From: Haloterrigena gelatinilytica | GTDB taxonomy: Archaea > Halobacteriota > Halobacteria > Halobacteriales > Natrialbaceae | Direction of reading: 5' to 3' | DNA: 64,000 nt | NCBI RefSeq assembly: GCF_013342145.1 | Contig: NZ_JABUQZ010000001.1 | Location: forward strand, 4,030,001 to 4,094,000 | Shown: positions 502 through 31,603 of the stretch, piece after piece | Layout: each line of letters begins with the position of its first letter | Position numbering within the stretch: the stretch's first letter is position 1 | Position numbers and translations under genes: made by a program | Notes under the pieces: generated by a model | Seen by the model: only the letters and a program-made list of their open reading frames with translations | What the model was told of the DNA's origin: nothing | The model's database searches: none

Positions 502-1335
502 TTATTCGAGCGGTTCAACCGTGATCCGTCCGATGTCCGTTTCGACTCGAAGCTGCGGCCCGCCGTCACCGAGTCGCCCGGTTACTTGCTCCTCGCTTCG
601 GGTCACGTCCTCGAGCGGGAGGTCGTCGACGTCGATCCGCCCCGTGTTCGTCTCCACGCGCAGGTCGGCGTCGACGGCCTCGCTCACGGCGGCGGTTACC
701 CGACCAGTCGACGCCGAGATCGTCGTCTCGCCGTCGATCGCCGGCACTTCGACGTTGATCCGGCCGGTCGAGGTGGACACGTCGCCGAGTCGCTCCGCGT
801 CCCGGATTTCGACCCGGCCCGTGCTCGCCTCGGCGGAGACCGTCCCGTCGACGCCCGCGATATCGACTCGGCCCGTGTCCGCGTCCGCGTGCAGATCGCC
901 CGCGACGTCGCGGACGGTGATCCGTCCCGTACTCGTTTCGATCCGCTCGAGGGCGACCTCGCGGGGGATCTCCGCGTCGACCTCCATCGAGGGGCGACTG
1001 GCGAGCCACCCCTCGCTGCCGTCCCACTCCGATCGGAGTTCGAGTCGGCCGTCGGCGAGCTCGGTCTCGAGGGTCAGCTCCTCGAGATCGGTCCGAACCG
1101 AGTCGGATTCCTTGACGATTTCGAGGCCCACGTCGTCCCGATCGGCGCCGGCGACCGAAATCCGTCCGATCTCGCTGACGATCGCGATCGACGCGGCGTC
1201 CTCGAGGGGGATCGTCTCGCGCTCCTCGCTGCGGTTGTTGACCACCGGAGTCGCTCCGAGACAGCCGGAGAGTCCGAGGAGACCCGCCGTTCCGACGCTC
1301 CCGAGCAGTTTCCGCCTAGTCGTGTCGGCGCTCAT
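502..1335 (-). CDS. DUF4097-like adhesin-type lipoprotein
   Basis: A 277-residue secreted protein. The N-terminus has a twin-arginine motif (TTRRKLL) and a lipobox (LSGC, Cys about 25), so Tat export and lipid anchoring outside the membrane are predicted. The mature part consists of short beta repeats with a Gly-Arg-hydrophobic signature (TGRITV, TGRVDI, TGRVEI, TGRINV, TGRVTA, TGRIDV, IGRITV) spaced about 20 residues apart. This is the pattern of the DUF4097 beta-helix/adhesin-like family. The ATG at 1335 puts the RR motif at residues 7-8; the GTG at 1347 would only add four residues. Role on the cell surface unknown. Confidence 0.8.
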   Translation of the reverse strand: MSADTTRRKLLGSVGTAGLLGLSGCLGATPVVNNRSEERETIPLEDAASIAIVSEIGRISVAGADRDDVGLEIVKESDSVRTDLEELTLETELADGRLELRSEWDGSEGWLASRPSMEVDAEIPREVALERIETSTGRITVRDVAGDLHADADTGRVDIAGVDGTVSAEASTGRVEIRDAERLGDVSTSTGRINVEVPAIDGETTISASTGRVTAAVSEAVDADLRVETNTGRIDVDDLPLEDVTRSEEQVTGRLGDGGPQLRVETDIGRITVEPLE

Positions 1336-1708
1336 ACGTAATTGCACGGACCGGTCCGACGTTAAGGGGTCGGTCGGTTGGCGATCGGCCAGTCGACCCC
1401 CGTGATTTTTGTGTACCGATCGATCCGTCGCCGGTCGATCTCAGCGTGACGAAAAACCTAACACCGTCCCGGGCGGTAACTCCGAAATACGTATGTTCCG
1501 TCCGGTCGCGGGTATGGTCGACGCGTTCGACGGCCCGCGAGAGGCGGTTTTCGTAGGGGCGTCCTAGCCCCGCATTCCCCACCCCGATTCGACGGATGTA
1601 TTGTCGGCGACCAGCATTCACCGAGCAACGACCGGTATCAGCAATGAGTACGCACACCTTCGACGCGACGACGACGCACGGCCGACGCCCCCCGCGGGCG
1701 GTGAGAGC
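1336..1708. other. Divergent intergenic region before valS
   Basis: This 373 bp stretch separates the divergently transcribed lipoprotein gene and valS. It holds a short T-run (1404-1409), a possible TATA-like stretch near 1484-1490 and a 22-codon ORF listed separately. I saw no tRNA or conserved RNA fold by eye. Confidence 0.5.
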
Positions 1709-8399: not shown

Positions 8400-9827
8400 C
8401 TATCGGAGCGCGGTCAGCTCGGCGTAGGCGTAGAAGTTGGCGGTCGAGGATCTATCGCGGGCCCAGATGCCCTCGAGAACCTGGAACGAACCGCCGTCGT
8501 AGGGCCAGTCGGGGTCCTCGTTGTAGGCGCCGCGGTCGTACTCTCCATCGGCGTTGATGAGGACGATGTACTCCTCACCGGCCTGAAGATCGTGCTCGAT
8601 CTGGAAGGTATCACCGGGACCGAGACCGGAGACGTCCGTCGTCGTGAGCGTGTTGCCGAGCCCGTCGGCGAGCTCCGCGGTATCCGCGCCCGTGGTCTGC
8701 TCGGAGATCGTCAACTCGAGGCCTGCGAGGTCGTCTTCGACCGCGATCCGAACCCCGCTGGGAGTGGTCGTGTCGGGCGTCACCCGCGTGTCCGCGGGCC
8801 TGTCGACGCTCCCTGCGACGCCCTCGTTATCGTCATCATCGTTGCCGTCGTCCGGGAGCGCAGTTAGCTCGGCGTAGGCGTAGAAGTTAGCGGTCGAGGA
8901 TCTATCGCGGGCCCAGATGCCCTCGAGGACTTGGAAGGAACCGCCGTCGTACGGCCAGTCGGGGTCCTCGTTGTAGGCACCGCGGTCGTACGTTTCGTCG
9001 GCATTGATGAGGACGAGGTACTCCTGACCGGCCCGGAGGTCGTGCTCAATCCGGAAGCTGTCGCCGGGACCGAGATCCGAGATGTCGACCGTCGTGAGCG
9101 TGTTGCCGAGCCCGTCGGCGAGCTCGGCTCTGTCCGCACCCGTTGTCTGATCGGAGATTGTGAGTTCGAGGCCCATGAGGTCTTCTTCGACCGAGATCCG
9201 GACGCCGCTCGGAGTGGTCGTGTCGGGCGTCACTCGCGTGTCCGCGGGCCTGTCGACGGTCCCTGTGACGTCTCCGTCTCCGTCTCCGTCGCCGTCGCTC
9301 TCCGCGATCGCGGTTAGCTCGGTGTAGGCGTAGAAGTTCTGGGTCGAACTCCTGTCGCGGGCCCAGATACCCTCGAGGACTTCGAAGGAGCCGCCGTCGT
9401 AGGGCCAGTCGGGATTCTCGTTGTAGGCGCCGCGGTCGTACTCTCCATCGGCGTTGATGAGGACGAGGTACTCCTCGCCGGCCTGAAAATCGTGCTCGAT
9501 CTGGAACGTGTCGCCGGGACCGAGACCGGAGACGTCCGTCGTCGTGAGCGTGCTGCCGAGCCCGTCGGCGAGCTCTGCGGTATCCGCGCCCGTGGTCTGC
9601 TCGGAGATCGTCAACTCGAGTCCGACGAGGTCTTCTTTGACTGCGATTCGAACGCCACTCGGGGTGGTCGTGTCGGGCGTGACTCGCGTGTCAGCGGGCC
9701 TGTCCACAGTCCCTTTCCTCTGGACGTTATCATCGGAATCTGCTGCACTGACTCCGATCGAAGCGAGTCCGCTGGCCGAAAGCGCTGCACCTGTCGCCAG
9801 CACCGAACGGCGATGCCATTTTGCCAT
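8400..9827 (-). CDS. Tat-exported protein of three tandem ~135-residue domains
   Basis: A 475-residue secreted protein. The Tat-type signal (HRRSVLATGAALSASG) is followed by three nearly identical domains, each running from VDRPADTRVTPDTTTPSGVR to YAELTAL. The domains are joined by Asp/Gly-rich linkers of about 15 residues. Each domain is predicted to be beta-rich, with conserved GLELTISEQTTGADTAEL, EEYLVLINADGEYDRGAY and DWPYDGGSF blocks. I do not recognise the domain; a carbohydrate-binding or adhesion module would fit the architecture, but that is inference. No catalytic signature, anchor or C-terminal sorting signal is seen, so it may be released. The ATG at 9827 matches the paralogous signal peptide next door. 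Confidence 0.85.
   Translation of the reverse strand: MAKWHRRSVLATGAALSASGLASIGVSAADSDDNVQRKGTVDRPADTRVTPDTTTPSGVRIAVKEDLVGLELTISEQTTGADTAELADGLGSTLTTTDVSGLGPGDTFQIEHDFQAGEEYLVLINADGEYDRGAYNENPDWPYDGGSFEVLEGIWARDRSSTQNFYAYTELTAIAESDGDGDGDGDVTGTVDRPADTRVTPDTTTPSGVRISVEEDLMGLELTISDQTTGADRAELADGLGNTLTTVDISDLGPGDSFRIEHDLRAGQEYLVLINADETYDRGAYNEDPDWPYDGGSFQVLEGIWARDRSSTANFYAYAELTALPDDGNDDDDNEGVAGSVDRPADTRVTPDTTTPSGVRIAVEDDLAGLELTISEQTTGADTAELADGLGNTLTTTDVSGLGPGDTFQIEHDLQAGEEYIVLINADGEYDRGAYNEDPDWPYDGGSFQVLEGIWARDRSSTANFYAYAELTALR
8403..9713 (-). repeat. Three tandem domain-coding repeats of about 405 bp
   Basis: Units lie at about 9306-9713, 8856-9260 and 8403-8810 (N- to C-terminal order). They remain close at the DNA level over long stretches, including synonymous positions, which points to recent duplication or ongoing gene conversion. 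The short linkers between units differ. Confidence 0.9.
9754..9827 (-). repeat. Signal-peptide cassette, copy 2
   Basis: Counterpart of 7687-7760; it encodes the Tat signal peptide of the triplicated-domain protein. The match ends abruptly where the mature proteins begin. Confidence 0.85.
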
Positions 9828-10062
9828 GCACTCGTCGGTGAGGAGGGCAATTGCCATCACTATCCAGTTGGTAGAGAATAGTTTTTAATCTAACAACTGT
9901 TCCAGGCGGGGCGACGAGCCGCGAGCCGGCGGAATACGGGTGTCCGAAAAGACGCCCCCGGTTGCCGTGTCGTACACGACTCGGATCGATAGTCTCGCTG
10001 CCGGGGGAGTATCGGTCCGAAGCGTCGAGGGAGAGGGAAACGACTCCGACCGACCATCGCCC

Positions 10063-28924: not shown

Positions 28925-31267
28925 TCACGACGGGATCGAGACGGCCAACCGCAACCCGCCCGCGTCGCTTTCTTCGACCGCGACCGACCAGCCGTGGGCC
29001 TCGACGACCTCGGCGACGATCGCCAGCCCGAAGCCGGTTCCCTCGGTGTCCGTACTGTAACCCCACTCGAGGACGCGGTCGCGTTCGCCGGGCGGGATTC
29101 CGGGCCCGTCGTCGGCGATCGCGAACCCCTCGAGGGTCGGCTCGACCGTGACGGTCACGGTCTCCCCGTCGCGTTCGCCGCGGTTCGTCGTCTCTTCGTC
29201 GAGGTCCTCCTGGGTCCCCTGGAAGCCGAGGGTCGCGGAGCCGTGTTCGACGGCGTCCTCCTGAGCGTGTGAAGGAGGGCTCGTCGAACCGTGTTCGACG
29301 GCGTCCTCGGGAGCATCAGCGACCGAGGACTCGGAAGACGCGGTGTGTCTTCCGTCGTCCTGACGAGCGTGCGAGTCAGGGCTCGTGGAGCCGTGCTCCA
29401 CAGCGTCCTCCTGAGCGTGCGAAGGAGGGCTCGTCGAACCGTGTTCGACGGCGTTACGAAACACGTTCTCGAAGAGGACCCGAAGCCGCTCCTCGTCGCC
29501 GTCGACCGTCGGCAGCGATCCGTCGCACACCACCTCGAGGTCGCCCTCGACCGTCCGCTCGGCGCGCTCGACGACGGCGGCGAGGTCGACCGGCTCGGTC
29601 TCGGTCAACCGCCGGCCGCTCCGGGCTAAGGTCAGGACGTTCTCGACGAGTTCGTCCATTCGGGTGAGGGCCCACTCGAGTTCGTCGACGTGACGATCGG
29701 TCTCGTCGTCGCCGTCGATCCGGCCCGCGAGGAGTTCGAGGTGGCCCGTCGCGAGCGTCAGCGGATTTCGGAGGTCGTGTGAAACCGTACTGGCGAAGGC
29801 CTCGAGCCGTTCGTTCTGGCGCTCGAGTTCGCGGCCGTGCTCCGCGAGTTCGCCCTCGCGCTCGGCGCGGTCGAGGGCGGCTTCGGCGTTGGCCGCGAGG
29901 ATCCGCGCCAGCGTCAGCGCTTCCGGATCGAAGTCGTTGGTCTCGAGCGAACTCACGATGAAGACCCCGTGATCGCCGAGCGGAACGTGGGCCTCGCTGC
30001 GGATCGGCGTCTCGGGGTTGCGAACGTTCGGCGCCTGCCGGACGTCGCCGTGGACGATCGCCTCGCCGGCCTCGTAGGCGTCCCAGGCGATCCCGCCGCC
30101 GGGTTCGATGTTCGACGGGATCCCGTCGAACAGCTCGAGCACGCGGTCGCTCATCGCGACGGGAACGAGCCCGCCCCGATCCGCGCCGTCCGATGCCGCC
30201 GGATCCGTCGGATCCGCCGTCCCGTCCGCTGCCGCTGGTTCGTCGGCCGATCCGTCTCCGGGGGAGTCGGCCGTCGATCGCGTCAGCACGTCCGGTTCGT
30301 ACAGGTGAACGGAGTTGAGATCGAAATCGAGCGCGTCGGCGGCAATCTCGGTCACGACGCGGGCGATCTCGTCGGTCTCCGTCGCCGCCATCAGCCGGCG
30401 CGTTCCGTCGTGTAGCTTCCGGATCCGCCGTTCGCGCTCCTTACGGTCCGAAACGTCGCGGACCACGCCGACGCTTCCCGCCAACGCGCCGTCGTCCTCG
30501 ATCAGCGGCGCGACGTTGGCTTCGGCGTCGCAAATCGCTCCGTCGGTGAACTCGACGGTGACGTCGGTGGTCTCCCACGCCCGATCGCCGGCCGTCCGAA
30601 GCTCGTCGAGCGTCGAGCGGATGCGGCCGGCGTCTCCGTCGGCGACGAAGTCGTCCACCGGCCGTCCGAGGAGTTCGTCGCGCGTCGTCTCGAGGACGTC
30701 GGCCATGGCCTCGTTGGCCATCTCGATGCGGCCGTCCGCGTCGAGGACGTACATGGAGTCCCCGACCGTCTCCACGAGCGTTCGGTACCGCTCGAGGTCC
30801 TGCTCGTGCTCGCGGTCTCGGTTCGGGTCCCGCGGCGCCGCCCGCTGGTCCGTCCGAGCGCGGCCCGCTCGGTTCGCGTCCGGTCCGCCCACGGTTTGCA
30901 ACTGCTCGCGGAGTCGCTCGACCGAATCCGTCCGTCCCTTCGGAACGTAGCCCGAGAATCCGGCCGTGATCGCCTCGCTGGCGAGCGTCTCGCTTCCGTC
31001 GGCGGTGTAGAGGAGAAACGGGGCGGTCGCGAGGCCGTCGGCTCGCAGCGAATCGTACAGCGCGAGCGCGTCCGTCTCTGGACCGTCGAGGCGGTATTCG
31101 GTGACGACGCAGGCGTACGCGCTCGACCCGTCCGCGAGCGCGTCGCGGAGGGCGGCCGCGGTCGCCACCGCCTCGAGTTCGATCGCGGCGTCGGCCGCGA
31201 GGTCGCGCGACAGCCGTCGCCGAGCCGTCTCGTCGGGATCGACGTACAGCACGGCTTTCGACGGCAT
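28925..31267 (-). CDS. Hybrid sensor histidine kinase: receiver-like, PAS, GAF, HisKA, HATPase
   Basis: A 780-residue cytosolic kinase. Order: receiver-like domain (about 1-120), PAS (about 155-280), GAF (about 300-470), HisKA with phosphorylatable His about 497 (TVSHDLRNPLTL), and HATPase with DDGPGIPPGERDRV and GTGFGLAI. The receiver lacks the usual phospho-Asp: the position reads VVTEYRLDG, with Glu. Inside the HATPase N-box (NVFRNAVEHG), copies of a DAVEHGSTSPPSHAQE-like peptide add about 70 residues. It has no membrane segment, so it senses internal signals. The ATG at 31267 begins MPSKAVLYVDPDE; one at 31294 is an alternative. Confidence 0.92.
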   Translation of the reverse strand: MPSKAVLYVDPDETARRRLSRDLAADAAIELEAVATAAALRDALADGSSAYACVVTEYRLDGPETDALALYDSLRADGLATAPFLLYTADGSETLASEAITAGFSGYVPKGRTDSVERLREQLQTVGGPDANRAGRARTDQRAAPRDPNRDREHEQDLERYRTLVETVGDSMYVLDADGRIEMANEAMADVLETTRDELLGRPVDDFVADGDAGRIRSTLDELRTAGDRAWETTDVTVEFTDGAICDAEANVAPLIEDDGALAGSVGVVRDVSDRKERERRIRKLHDGTRRLMAATETDEIARVVTEIAADALDFDLNSVHLYEPDVLTRSTADSPGDGSADEPAAADGTADPTDPAASDGADRGGLVPVAMSDRVLELFDGIPSNIEPGGGIAWDAYEAGEAIVHGDVRQAPNVRNPETPIRSEAHVPLGDHGVFIVSSLETNDFDPEALTLARILAANAEAALDRAEREGELAEHGRELERQNERLEAFASTVSHDLRNPLTLATGHLELLAGRIDGDDETDRHVDELEWALTRMDELVENVLTLARSGRRLTETEPVDLAAVVERAERTVEGDLEVVCDGSLPTVDGDEERLRVLFENVFRNAVEHGSTSPPSHAQEDAVEHGSTSPDSHARQDDGRHTASSESSVADAPEDAVEHGSTSPPSHAQEDAVEHGSATLGFQGTQEDLDEETTNRGERDGETVTVTVEPTLEGFAIADDGPGIPPGERDRVLEWGYSTDTEGTGFGLAIVAEVVEAHGWSVAVEESDAGGLRLAVSIPS
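29241..29453 (-). repeat. In-frame minisatellite inside the kinase ATP-binding domain
   Basis: 48-bp units begin at 29241, 29289, 29391 and 29439 (last one partial and native). Units 1 and 3 agree at about 44 of 48 bases by eye. A degenerate unit lies inside 29358-29390. Each encodes a copy of the N-box peptide AVEHGS plus a Ser/Pro/His linker. Confidence 0.85.
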
Positions 31268-31603
31268 CGAACGTGTGCGTCCGGCGTCGACCATCTCGTT
31301 GCGTCCGAACAGTAACGCGGCCACGATAAGCGATTCGGCCGGCGCAAGCGGACTCGCCCGCTCGATCGCCGAACTGTCGACCTCGAGACGGAGGGCGCGG
31401 ACGGACGCCGATCCGTGAAACGGCAGGGCGGATCGCGCCGGAGATGAGATAAAATATGGGTAATTTCCGTCGAAACGGCACGACGGGTCGCGTCGTCGAC
31501 GACCCGTATCGAGGGTTGGGTTCGAATTTCGAAAAGCCGTTTCGAGATTCGTACTGTATCGTGGGGCTTATTACGATGTGCGAACTCCGGACGAACAAGA
31601 GAA

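What the first reader, a model, noticed from the sequence alone, without database searches (positions are those of the whole stretch)
29241..29453. Minisatellite grown inside a kinase ATP-binding domain
Four 48-bp units duplicate the N-box segment NAVEHGS, the ATP-contacting element, together with a Ser/Pro/His linker. Repeated insertion of the active-site peptide in-frame is striking and could vary between cells through slippage, tuning kinase activity. I recall similar AVEHGSTSP repeats in other haloarchaeal kinases but cannot confirm numbers.
Basis: partly seen in the sequence, partly recalled or inferred. Interest (0 to 1): 0.7.

Follow-up and report, generated by a model that had tools for sequence, protein, structure and literature searches.

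The report
Mobile DNA hairpins inside haloarchaeal genes
The repeats in this sensor-kinase gene are stacked copies of a tiny (48-letter) mobile DNA element made of two hairpins, which inserts in frame at the same spot in many haloarchaeal kinases and also in unrelated proteins, adding 16 amino acids each time; I found no earlier description of it.

Summary
The repeat is real, but it is not simply a kinase minisatellite. On the coding strand the insert is a row of hairpins (55 of 55 stem positions paired; synonymous-codon controls never exceed 50). Among 204 VEHGST units from haloarchaeal kinases, synonymous wobble bases on opposite stem arms co-vary (178 and 182 pair; 86 and 102 expected), and the second stem co-varies too, dictating amino-acid changes. 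The 48-bp unit also lies in frame in unrelated genes: glutamyl-tRNA synthetase, CbiE methyltransferase, a lactamase-rhodanese protein at two sites, Cgi121 and others. Empty and filled alleles differ by exactly 48 bp at the best-resolved sites. Orthologues of the window's kinase in one genus range from no insert to a full array; a predicted structure shows the insert as a disordered loop after the N-box helix, core intact. The catalytic asparagines are not duplicated. Best reading: a haloarchaeal in-frame palindromic mobile element that works like Rickettsia palindromic elements or intragenic REPs, with the N-box codons as hotspot. Mobility and hairpins are shown; the moving agent (hairpin-assisted template switching, gene conversion or a Y1 transposase) is inferred. 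Strain-level copy number and functional effect were not testable.

The parts
28925..31324 (-). Histidine kinase gene (799 aa, PAS-GAF-HisKA-HATPase_c) that carries the array
   Evidence: ORF; Pfam; orthologues
29235..29455 (-). Whole hairpin array from the N-box NAVEH codons onward; the insert is a disordered loop in the model
29433..29449 (-). H1a hairpin GTCGAAC-acg-GTTCGAC (codons of VEHGST); 5' arm = native N-box codons
29407..29428 (-). H2a hairpin CCTCCT-tcgcacgctc-AGGAGG (PPSHAQED)
29385..29401 (-). H1b hairpin GTGGAGC-acg-GCTCCAC; same peptide as H1a with both arms changed
29359..29380 (-). H2b hairpin CCTGAC-tcgcacgctc-GTCAGG (PDSHARQD)
29332..29354 (-). H1c hairpin CGGAAGAC-acaccgc-GTCTTCCG (GRHTASSE); same family as intergenic copies in this genome
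29303..29330 (-). H2c hairpin GTCCTCGG-tcgctgatgctc-CCGAGGAC (SSVADAPED); same family as intergenic copies
29283..29299 (-). H1d hairpin GTCGAAC-acg-GTTCGAC
29257..29278 (-). H2d hairpin CCTCCT-tcacacgctc-AGGAGG
29235..29251 (-). H1e, decayed last hairpin GTCGAACACGGCTCCGC (VEHGSA)

Best explanation
The array is a stack of copies of a small palindromic mobile element of haloarchaea. One copy adds 48 bp (16 codons): hairpin H1 (7-bp stem, 3-nt loop, GNNGARC-nnn-GYTCNNC), GAGC, hairpin H2 (6-bp stem, CCTNNN-TCGCANNCTC-NNNAGG) and AC, beside a direct repeat of about 5-17 bp containing ACGCC. Because 48 is divisible by three, coding copies keep the frame and add a hydrophilic loop such as AVEHGSTSPxSxxxxD. 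The kinase N-box codons (AACGCCGTCGAACACGG) already supply the left part of H1, so the loop after the N-box helix is the hotspot and copies stack there. Shown: 48-bp presence/absence, unrelated host genes, hairpins with co-varying arms, copy-number differences between orthologues. Inferred: spread by hairpin-assisted template switching or ectopic gene conversion seeded at the short GACGCC(G) homology, the same process keeping the arms complementary (about 0.5 likely given that the element is mobile); little or no effect on the host protein beyond a loop.
For: Unselected positions co-vary: V3-S3 178/204 (86 expected), E3-G3 182/204 (102 expected), 0 of 10000 permutations, control pairings below expectation. 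The pattern CCTNNNTCNCANNCTCNNNAGGAC over 292 genomes hit 67 genomes in 28 genera, reversed-pattern control 0; in 115 of 150 listed hits the free NNN arms are fully complementary (21 expected, maximum 37). For 37 distinct non-kinase copies, 92.9% of stem cells pair against 26-39% when slid, covariation 0.405 against 0.127 shuffled. Non-kinase hosts were identified by Pfam/NCBIfam: GltX E=1e-197, CbiE 4e-116, lactamase_B+rhodanese, Cgi121, VLRF1, AMP-binding, AI-2E transporter, CbiZ. Exact 48-bp empty/filled pairs at two sites of one protein sharing the target ACGCC|GACGACCT; GltX and CbiE empty and filled alleles within one genus. Orthologues of the window kinase: no insert in G255, G116, G004; one unit in G197; a broken unit in G181; shorter arrays in G356 and G192; most in the window. 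Spacings between successive kinase H1 hairpins all divide by 3 (215 spacings). Model: most of the ATPase core above pLDDT 90, insert below 50.
Against: No moving enzyme is identified. The element boundary is ambiguous because of the direct repeat, so true transposition and homology-driven cassette copying cannot be told apart. Copies in paralogous kinases may spread by gene conversion only. All comparisons are between species; no within-species polymorphism was seen. The strict pattern had no exact match in viral contigs, so no vector is known.
Confidence: 0.84

Rival explanations
1. Ordinary minisatellite: the N-box segment was tandemly duplicated by slippage or unequal recombination; similar arrays in other kinases come from shared descent and gene conversion.
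For: Copy number varies, some arrays hold near-identical units (L033, L039), and the G192 orthologue holds a chimeric H2 (5' arm CCTGAC, 3' arm AGGAGG) best explained by deletion between the identical loops.
Against: Slippage explains neither the in-frame copies in unrelated proteins nor hairpin arms that change together. It probably acts secondarily, to expand and shrink arrays.
Confidence: 0.06
2. The hairpins are kept by selection as mRNA structures (translation or mRNA-decay control inside the gene).
For: RNA folding z-score -5.6; compensatory changes are the classic sign of RNA structure.
Against: G-U intermediates are not favoured over A-C mismatches: 11 against 16 in H1, 3 against 24 in the linker stems, 13 against 33 and 4 against 15 in the 48-mers. 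Hosts are functionally unrelated and close relatives lack the element. No Rfam match. Codon GC pressure may distort the mismatch counts.
Confidence: 0.06
3. A REP-like element moved by a Y1 (IS200/IS605, RAYT-type) transposase that acts on single-stranded hairpins and inserts next to a short target (a different motor for the same mobile element as in the best explanation).
For: Two-hairpin architecture, short target preference, intergenic cousins. Haloarchaea carry many IS605-type elements and palindrome-associated non-autonomous elements (PATEs in Haloquadratum, PMC3119063).
Against: REP families are defined by conserved stem sequence (PMC3733652); here the stems vary freely while loops and flanks are conserved. 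A direct repeat flanks the insert, whereas PATEs and IS605 elements make none (PMC3119063). No transposase was tested.
Confidence: 0.25
4. The inserted peptide is a functional protein module selected in the kinase (for example a sensor or regulatory loop).
For: Recurrent at one site in many kinases.
Against: The same peptide sits in a tRNA synthetase, a methyltransferase, a hydrolase and a transporter; amino-acid changes follow base pairing; the model shows disorder; close orthologues lack it.
Confidence: 0.04

Closest known systems
Rickettsia palindromic elements (RPE), as discussed with intragenic REPs in PMC3733652
   Same: Short palindromic DNA that inserts in frame in unrelated protein genes and between genes and is translated into extra residues.
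   Different: Here 48 bp instead of roughly 100-150 bp (RPE-1 size from memory); two short hairpins with freely varying, co-varying stems; haloarchaea; kinase N-box hotspot with stacking.
Intragenic REPs, GTAG/CGTC families (PMC3733652)
   Same: 20-40 bp palindromes, often paired, intergenic and sometimes inside genes, mostly downstream of genes.
   Different: Those REPs are defined by a conserved GTAG or CGTC end and linked to transposases; here stems are free, and the loop (TCGCANNCTC) and flanks (GAGCCCT, AGGACGCC) are conserved.
PARCELs (PMC2996958)
   Same: Tandem coding repeats with dyad symmetry, spread between genes and taxa.
   Different: 25-residue amphipathic repeats in ORFs without assigned function; here a 16-residue hydrophilic insert in conserved enzymes.
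Haloquadratum PATEs and small mobile repeats (PMC3119063)
   Same: Transposase-free haloarchaeal mobile repeats with palindromes or inverted repeats.
   Different: Longer (small mobile repeats about 80-110 bp, a PATE of 390 bp); PATEs are related to IS605 ends; no target duplication; no in-frame coding role in the passages read.
Template-switch homogenised inverted repeats (PMC8604942, PMC8794818)
   Same: A mutational route that makes both arms of a short inverted repeat complementary, changing several residues at once.
   Different: Acts in place on existing repeats; it is not a dispersed element with conserved loop, flanks and target.

Membership tests
Rickettsia palindromic elements (by analogy) | Palindromic DNA inserted in frame in unrelated protein genes, with empty alleles in relatives | tested here: met
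Rickettsia palindromic elements (by analogy) | Sequence homology to an RPE family | not tested
   No RPE sequence was compared; size and hairpin layout differ. Filed as works-like, not member.
REP sequences (GTAG/CGTC super-families) | GTAG or CGTC tetranucleotide at one end of the repeat | tested here: not met
   Conserved flanks are GAGC before H2 and AC/GACGCC after it; no conserved GTAG, and a CGTC occurs only where a stem arm happens to give it
REP sequences (GTAG/CGTC super-families) | Associated tyrosine (RAYT/Y1) transposase | not tested
   No transposase survey was made
REP sequences (GTAG/CGTC super-families) | Intergenic copies | tested here: met
   Cousins with H1 = GGAAGACGC..GCGTCTTCC in DNA of the same genome without a credible gene reading frame
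Haloquadratum PATE / IS605-derived elements | No target duplication | tested here: inconclusive
   A 5-17 bp direct repeat flanks copies, but it may belong to the element
Minisatellite by slippage | Confined to one locus and its descendants, head-to-tail | tested here: not met
   Single copies in unrelated genes
Histidine kinase HisKA/HATPase_c | HisKA and HATPase_c domains with N-box and G boxes | tested here: met
   Pfam; model and PDB fold matches to CpxA, ZraS, HK853
Known structured RNA | Match to an Rfam family | tested here: not met

The most novel reading that the evidence does not exclude
A self-templating mobile element: at each new site the element builds one stem of its first hairpin from the target itself (the target gives the 5' arm, and a fold-back copy of it becomes the 3' arm), so its stems differ at every site yet always pair, and no sequence-specific transposase is needed.
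Probability: 0.2. Interest if true: 0.92.

Novelty: new variant of a known kind. Interest (0 to 1): 0.74.

Why it matters
A 48-bp element that enters conserved enzymes (tRNA synthetase, cobalamin enzymes, Cgi121, sensor kinases) without breaking the frame would be a widespread, apparently undescribed source of protein insertions in haloarchaea. Stems that change in both arms while loop and flanks stay fixed make it a natural test of how perfect hairpins arise and persist (template switching against selection), and the empty/filled alleles and kinase copy-number series can be tested in the laboratory. It also corrects how these kinases should be annotated: the repeats are not duplicated active sites.

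Tried and rejected
Rfam: no match. Viral contigs: no exact match to the strict pattern, one pattern only. Literature: nothing on this element in nine full-text searches; most subscription papers are not held. A scan for inverted H2 loops was void because both strands were searched and it recovered the normal element; only one H1 loop inversion (CGCGC/GCGCG in CbiE, L311/L313) remained. A count of generic inverted repeats in the window (72 against 32-44 in codon-shuffled controls) was judged too noisy to use. Opposite-strand and other reading frames for L248 and L285 gave no decisive Pfam support, so these copies are left unclassified. An mRNA-structure explanation was considered and lowered because G-U pairs are not favoured over A-C.

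Full report
What is in the window. The gene is a 799-aa histidine kinase on the minus strand, 28925..31324, with PAS, GAF, HisKA and HATPase_c domains and a receiver domain below the curated cut-off. The insert follows the N-box and reads NAVEHGST-SPPSHAQED-AVEHGST-SPDSHARQD-DGRHTASSE-SSVADAPED-AVEHGST-SPPSHAQED-AVEHGSA. TRF reports period 48 at 29241-29454. The distances between the VEHGS segments are 48, 102 and 48 bp, so 'four 48-bp units' is only roughly right. Only the first copy carries the asparagine; N126 and N130 of the modelled kinase fragment, invariant in 39 aligned kinases, are not duplicated.

The DNA is a row of hairpins. On the coding strand each VEHGST is a 7-3-7 hairpin (GTCGAAC-acg-GTTCGAC or GTGGAGC-acg-GCTCCAC: same peptide, both arms changed), and each linker is a second hairpin whose arms differ between units (CCTCCT/AGGAGG, CCTGAC/GTCAGG, GTCCTCGG/CCGAGGAC, CGGAAGAC/GTCTTCCG). 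All 55 stem positions pair; synonymous-codon controls reach at most 46 and 50 (stems were defined by inspection first). Folding z-scores are -4.9 as DNA and -5.6 as RNA.

Co-variation. In 204 VEHGST units from 78 haloarchaeal arrays, the wobble bases of Val and Ser pair in 178 cases (86 expected) and those of Glu and Gly in 182 (102 expected), with all four Watson-Crick types present for the first; off-register pairings fall below expectation. In 140 linkers four stem pairs co-vary, which explains linked amino-acid changes such as PPSHAQED, PDSHARQD, PRSQAPED, PGSQAHQD. A search leaving the arms free (CCTNNNTCNCANNCTCNNNAGGAC) in 292 genomes found the unit in 67 genomes and 28 genera, with none for the reversed pattern; 115 of 150 listed hits have fully complementary arms, of 11 kinds (21 expected). 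Related sequences inflate such counts, but the distinct-sequence subsets give the same answer. G-T mismatches are not more common than A-C, so sense-RNA folding is not the obvious force.

The unit is not confined to kinases. Of 110 loci inspected, about 70 are kinase N-boxes, 37 lie in frame in other proteins, and three are non-coding or unclear (sorted partly by eye). Identified hosts include glutamyl-tRNA synthetase, CbiE, lactamase-rhodanese proteins at two different sites, an AMP-binding enzyme, Cgi121, a VLRF1-type release factor, an AI-2E transporter, an EstD-like esterase, AstE/AspA and CbiZ. In 37 distinct non-kinase copies H1, which played no part in selection, co-varies strongly; formally, 92.9% of stem cells pair against 26-39% when slid, covariation 0.405 against 0.127.

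Empty and filled sites. In the lactamase-rhodanese protein, site 2 is empty in L193 (TACGCC|GACGACCTGACG) and filled by exactly 48 bp in L189; site 1 is empty in L212 and L186 and filled by 48 bp in L194; L195 has both. The two targets share ACGCC|GACGACCT. In one genus GltX is empty in G231, G032, G338 and G350 and filled in G163 and G263, with an older altered copy in G186. CbiE in one genus is empty in G116, G166, G120 and G329, has one unit in G293, G400 and G150, two in G271 and four in G352; single copies repeat the target (such as CAGGACGCCGTGGAA in G150) on both sides. In kinases the native N-box DNA (GTCGAACACGG, seen in the insert-free kinase L018) equals the left part of H1, which explains the hotspot.

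The window's own kinase shows recent growth. Orthologues at 63-67% identity, including one in the same genus, have no insert (NADEHAGADATVTVEP in G255); 81% has one unit; 83% has a broken unit; 89-90% have shorter arrays, one with a chimeric H2 from recombination between loops; the window has most. The N-box residues changed (D to V, AG to GST) with the insertion, as expected if the cassette or its stem was copied in. Five kinases of this genome carry arrays. The middle pair (GRHTASSESSVADAPED) belongs to a related hairpin pair that lies in intergenic DNA of the same genome, in a few other haloarchaea and in one CbiE (L271).

Distribution. 162 of 391 class genomes encode the repeat peptide; the strict DNA pattern occurs in none of the 312 sampled genomes of other classes of the phylum. 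No exact match was found in viral contigs.

Protein consequence. AlphaFold2 with 39 kinases gives a confident ATPase core; residues 137-223 of the 305-residue fragment (the insert) are mostly below pLDDT 50, between the N-box helix (117-134) and the next strand (229-236). The model matches solved kinases such as CpxA, ZraS and HK853. The insert is thus most likely a tolerated loop, not a set of extra ATP sites.

Mechanism. Shown: a discrete 48-bp in-frame unit, presence/absence in close relatives, a preferred short target, conserved loop and flanks, co-varying stems, stacking at the N-box. Inferred: spread by hairpin-assisted template switching or gene conversion at short GACGCC(G) homology, with template switching also keeping the arms complementary. 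Arm homogenisation and loop inversion by template switching are documented in yeast coding DNA (PMC8604942) and compensatory stem changes in RNA genes (PMC8794818); one loop inversion was seen here (CbiE L311/L313). A Y1-type transposase remains possible.

Known kinds. It works like Rickettsia palindromic elements and intragenic REPs (PMC3733652), but lacks the GTAG/CGTC end of those REPs, and differs from PARCELs (PMC2996958) and from Haloquadratum PATEs and small mobile repeats (PMC3119063). I found no description of it in the open library, which lacks most subscription papers.

Noticed in passing
window 8405-9704: 450-bp tandem repeat, 2.9 copies, 84% matches, inside minus-strand ORF 8400..9860: a repeat protein of 150-aa units.
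   Followed up: no
L137-L148 (own genome, intergenic): Intergenic regions hold rows of further perfect hairpins with differing arms, beyond the family studied (for example GAGACGGCTTCGCCGTCTC), often downstream of genes.
   Followed up: partly
L220 about 1005-1095 (-), L330 about 1450-1580 (-): Intergenic two-hairpin cousins abut T-arm-like sequences (GGTTCGAATCC or its complement), possibly tRNA 3' remnants; the intact tRNAs found nearby are not the same spots.
   Followed up: partly
L311 and L313 (CbiE): H1 loop is CGCGC in one and GCGCG in the other with identical arms, giving VERAST against VEARST: a possible loop inversion.
   Followed up: partly
L174 (G192 orthologue of the window kinase): Chimeric H2 with unmatched arms (CCTGAC..AGGAGG), as expected from deletion between two identical loops; shows arms can be left unpaired after recombination.
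   Followed up: yes
kinase arrays: Adjacent H1 units tend to differ at the Val/Ser wobble pair, mostly C-G against G-C (92 different, 45 same); two units apart they tend to agree (42 same, 20 different).
   Followed up: partly
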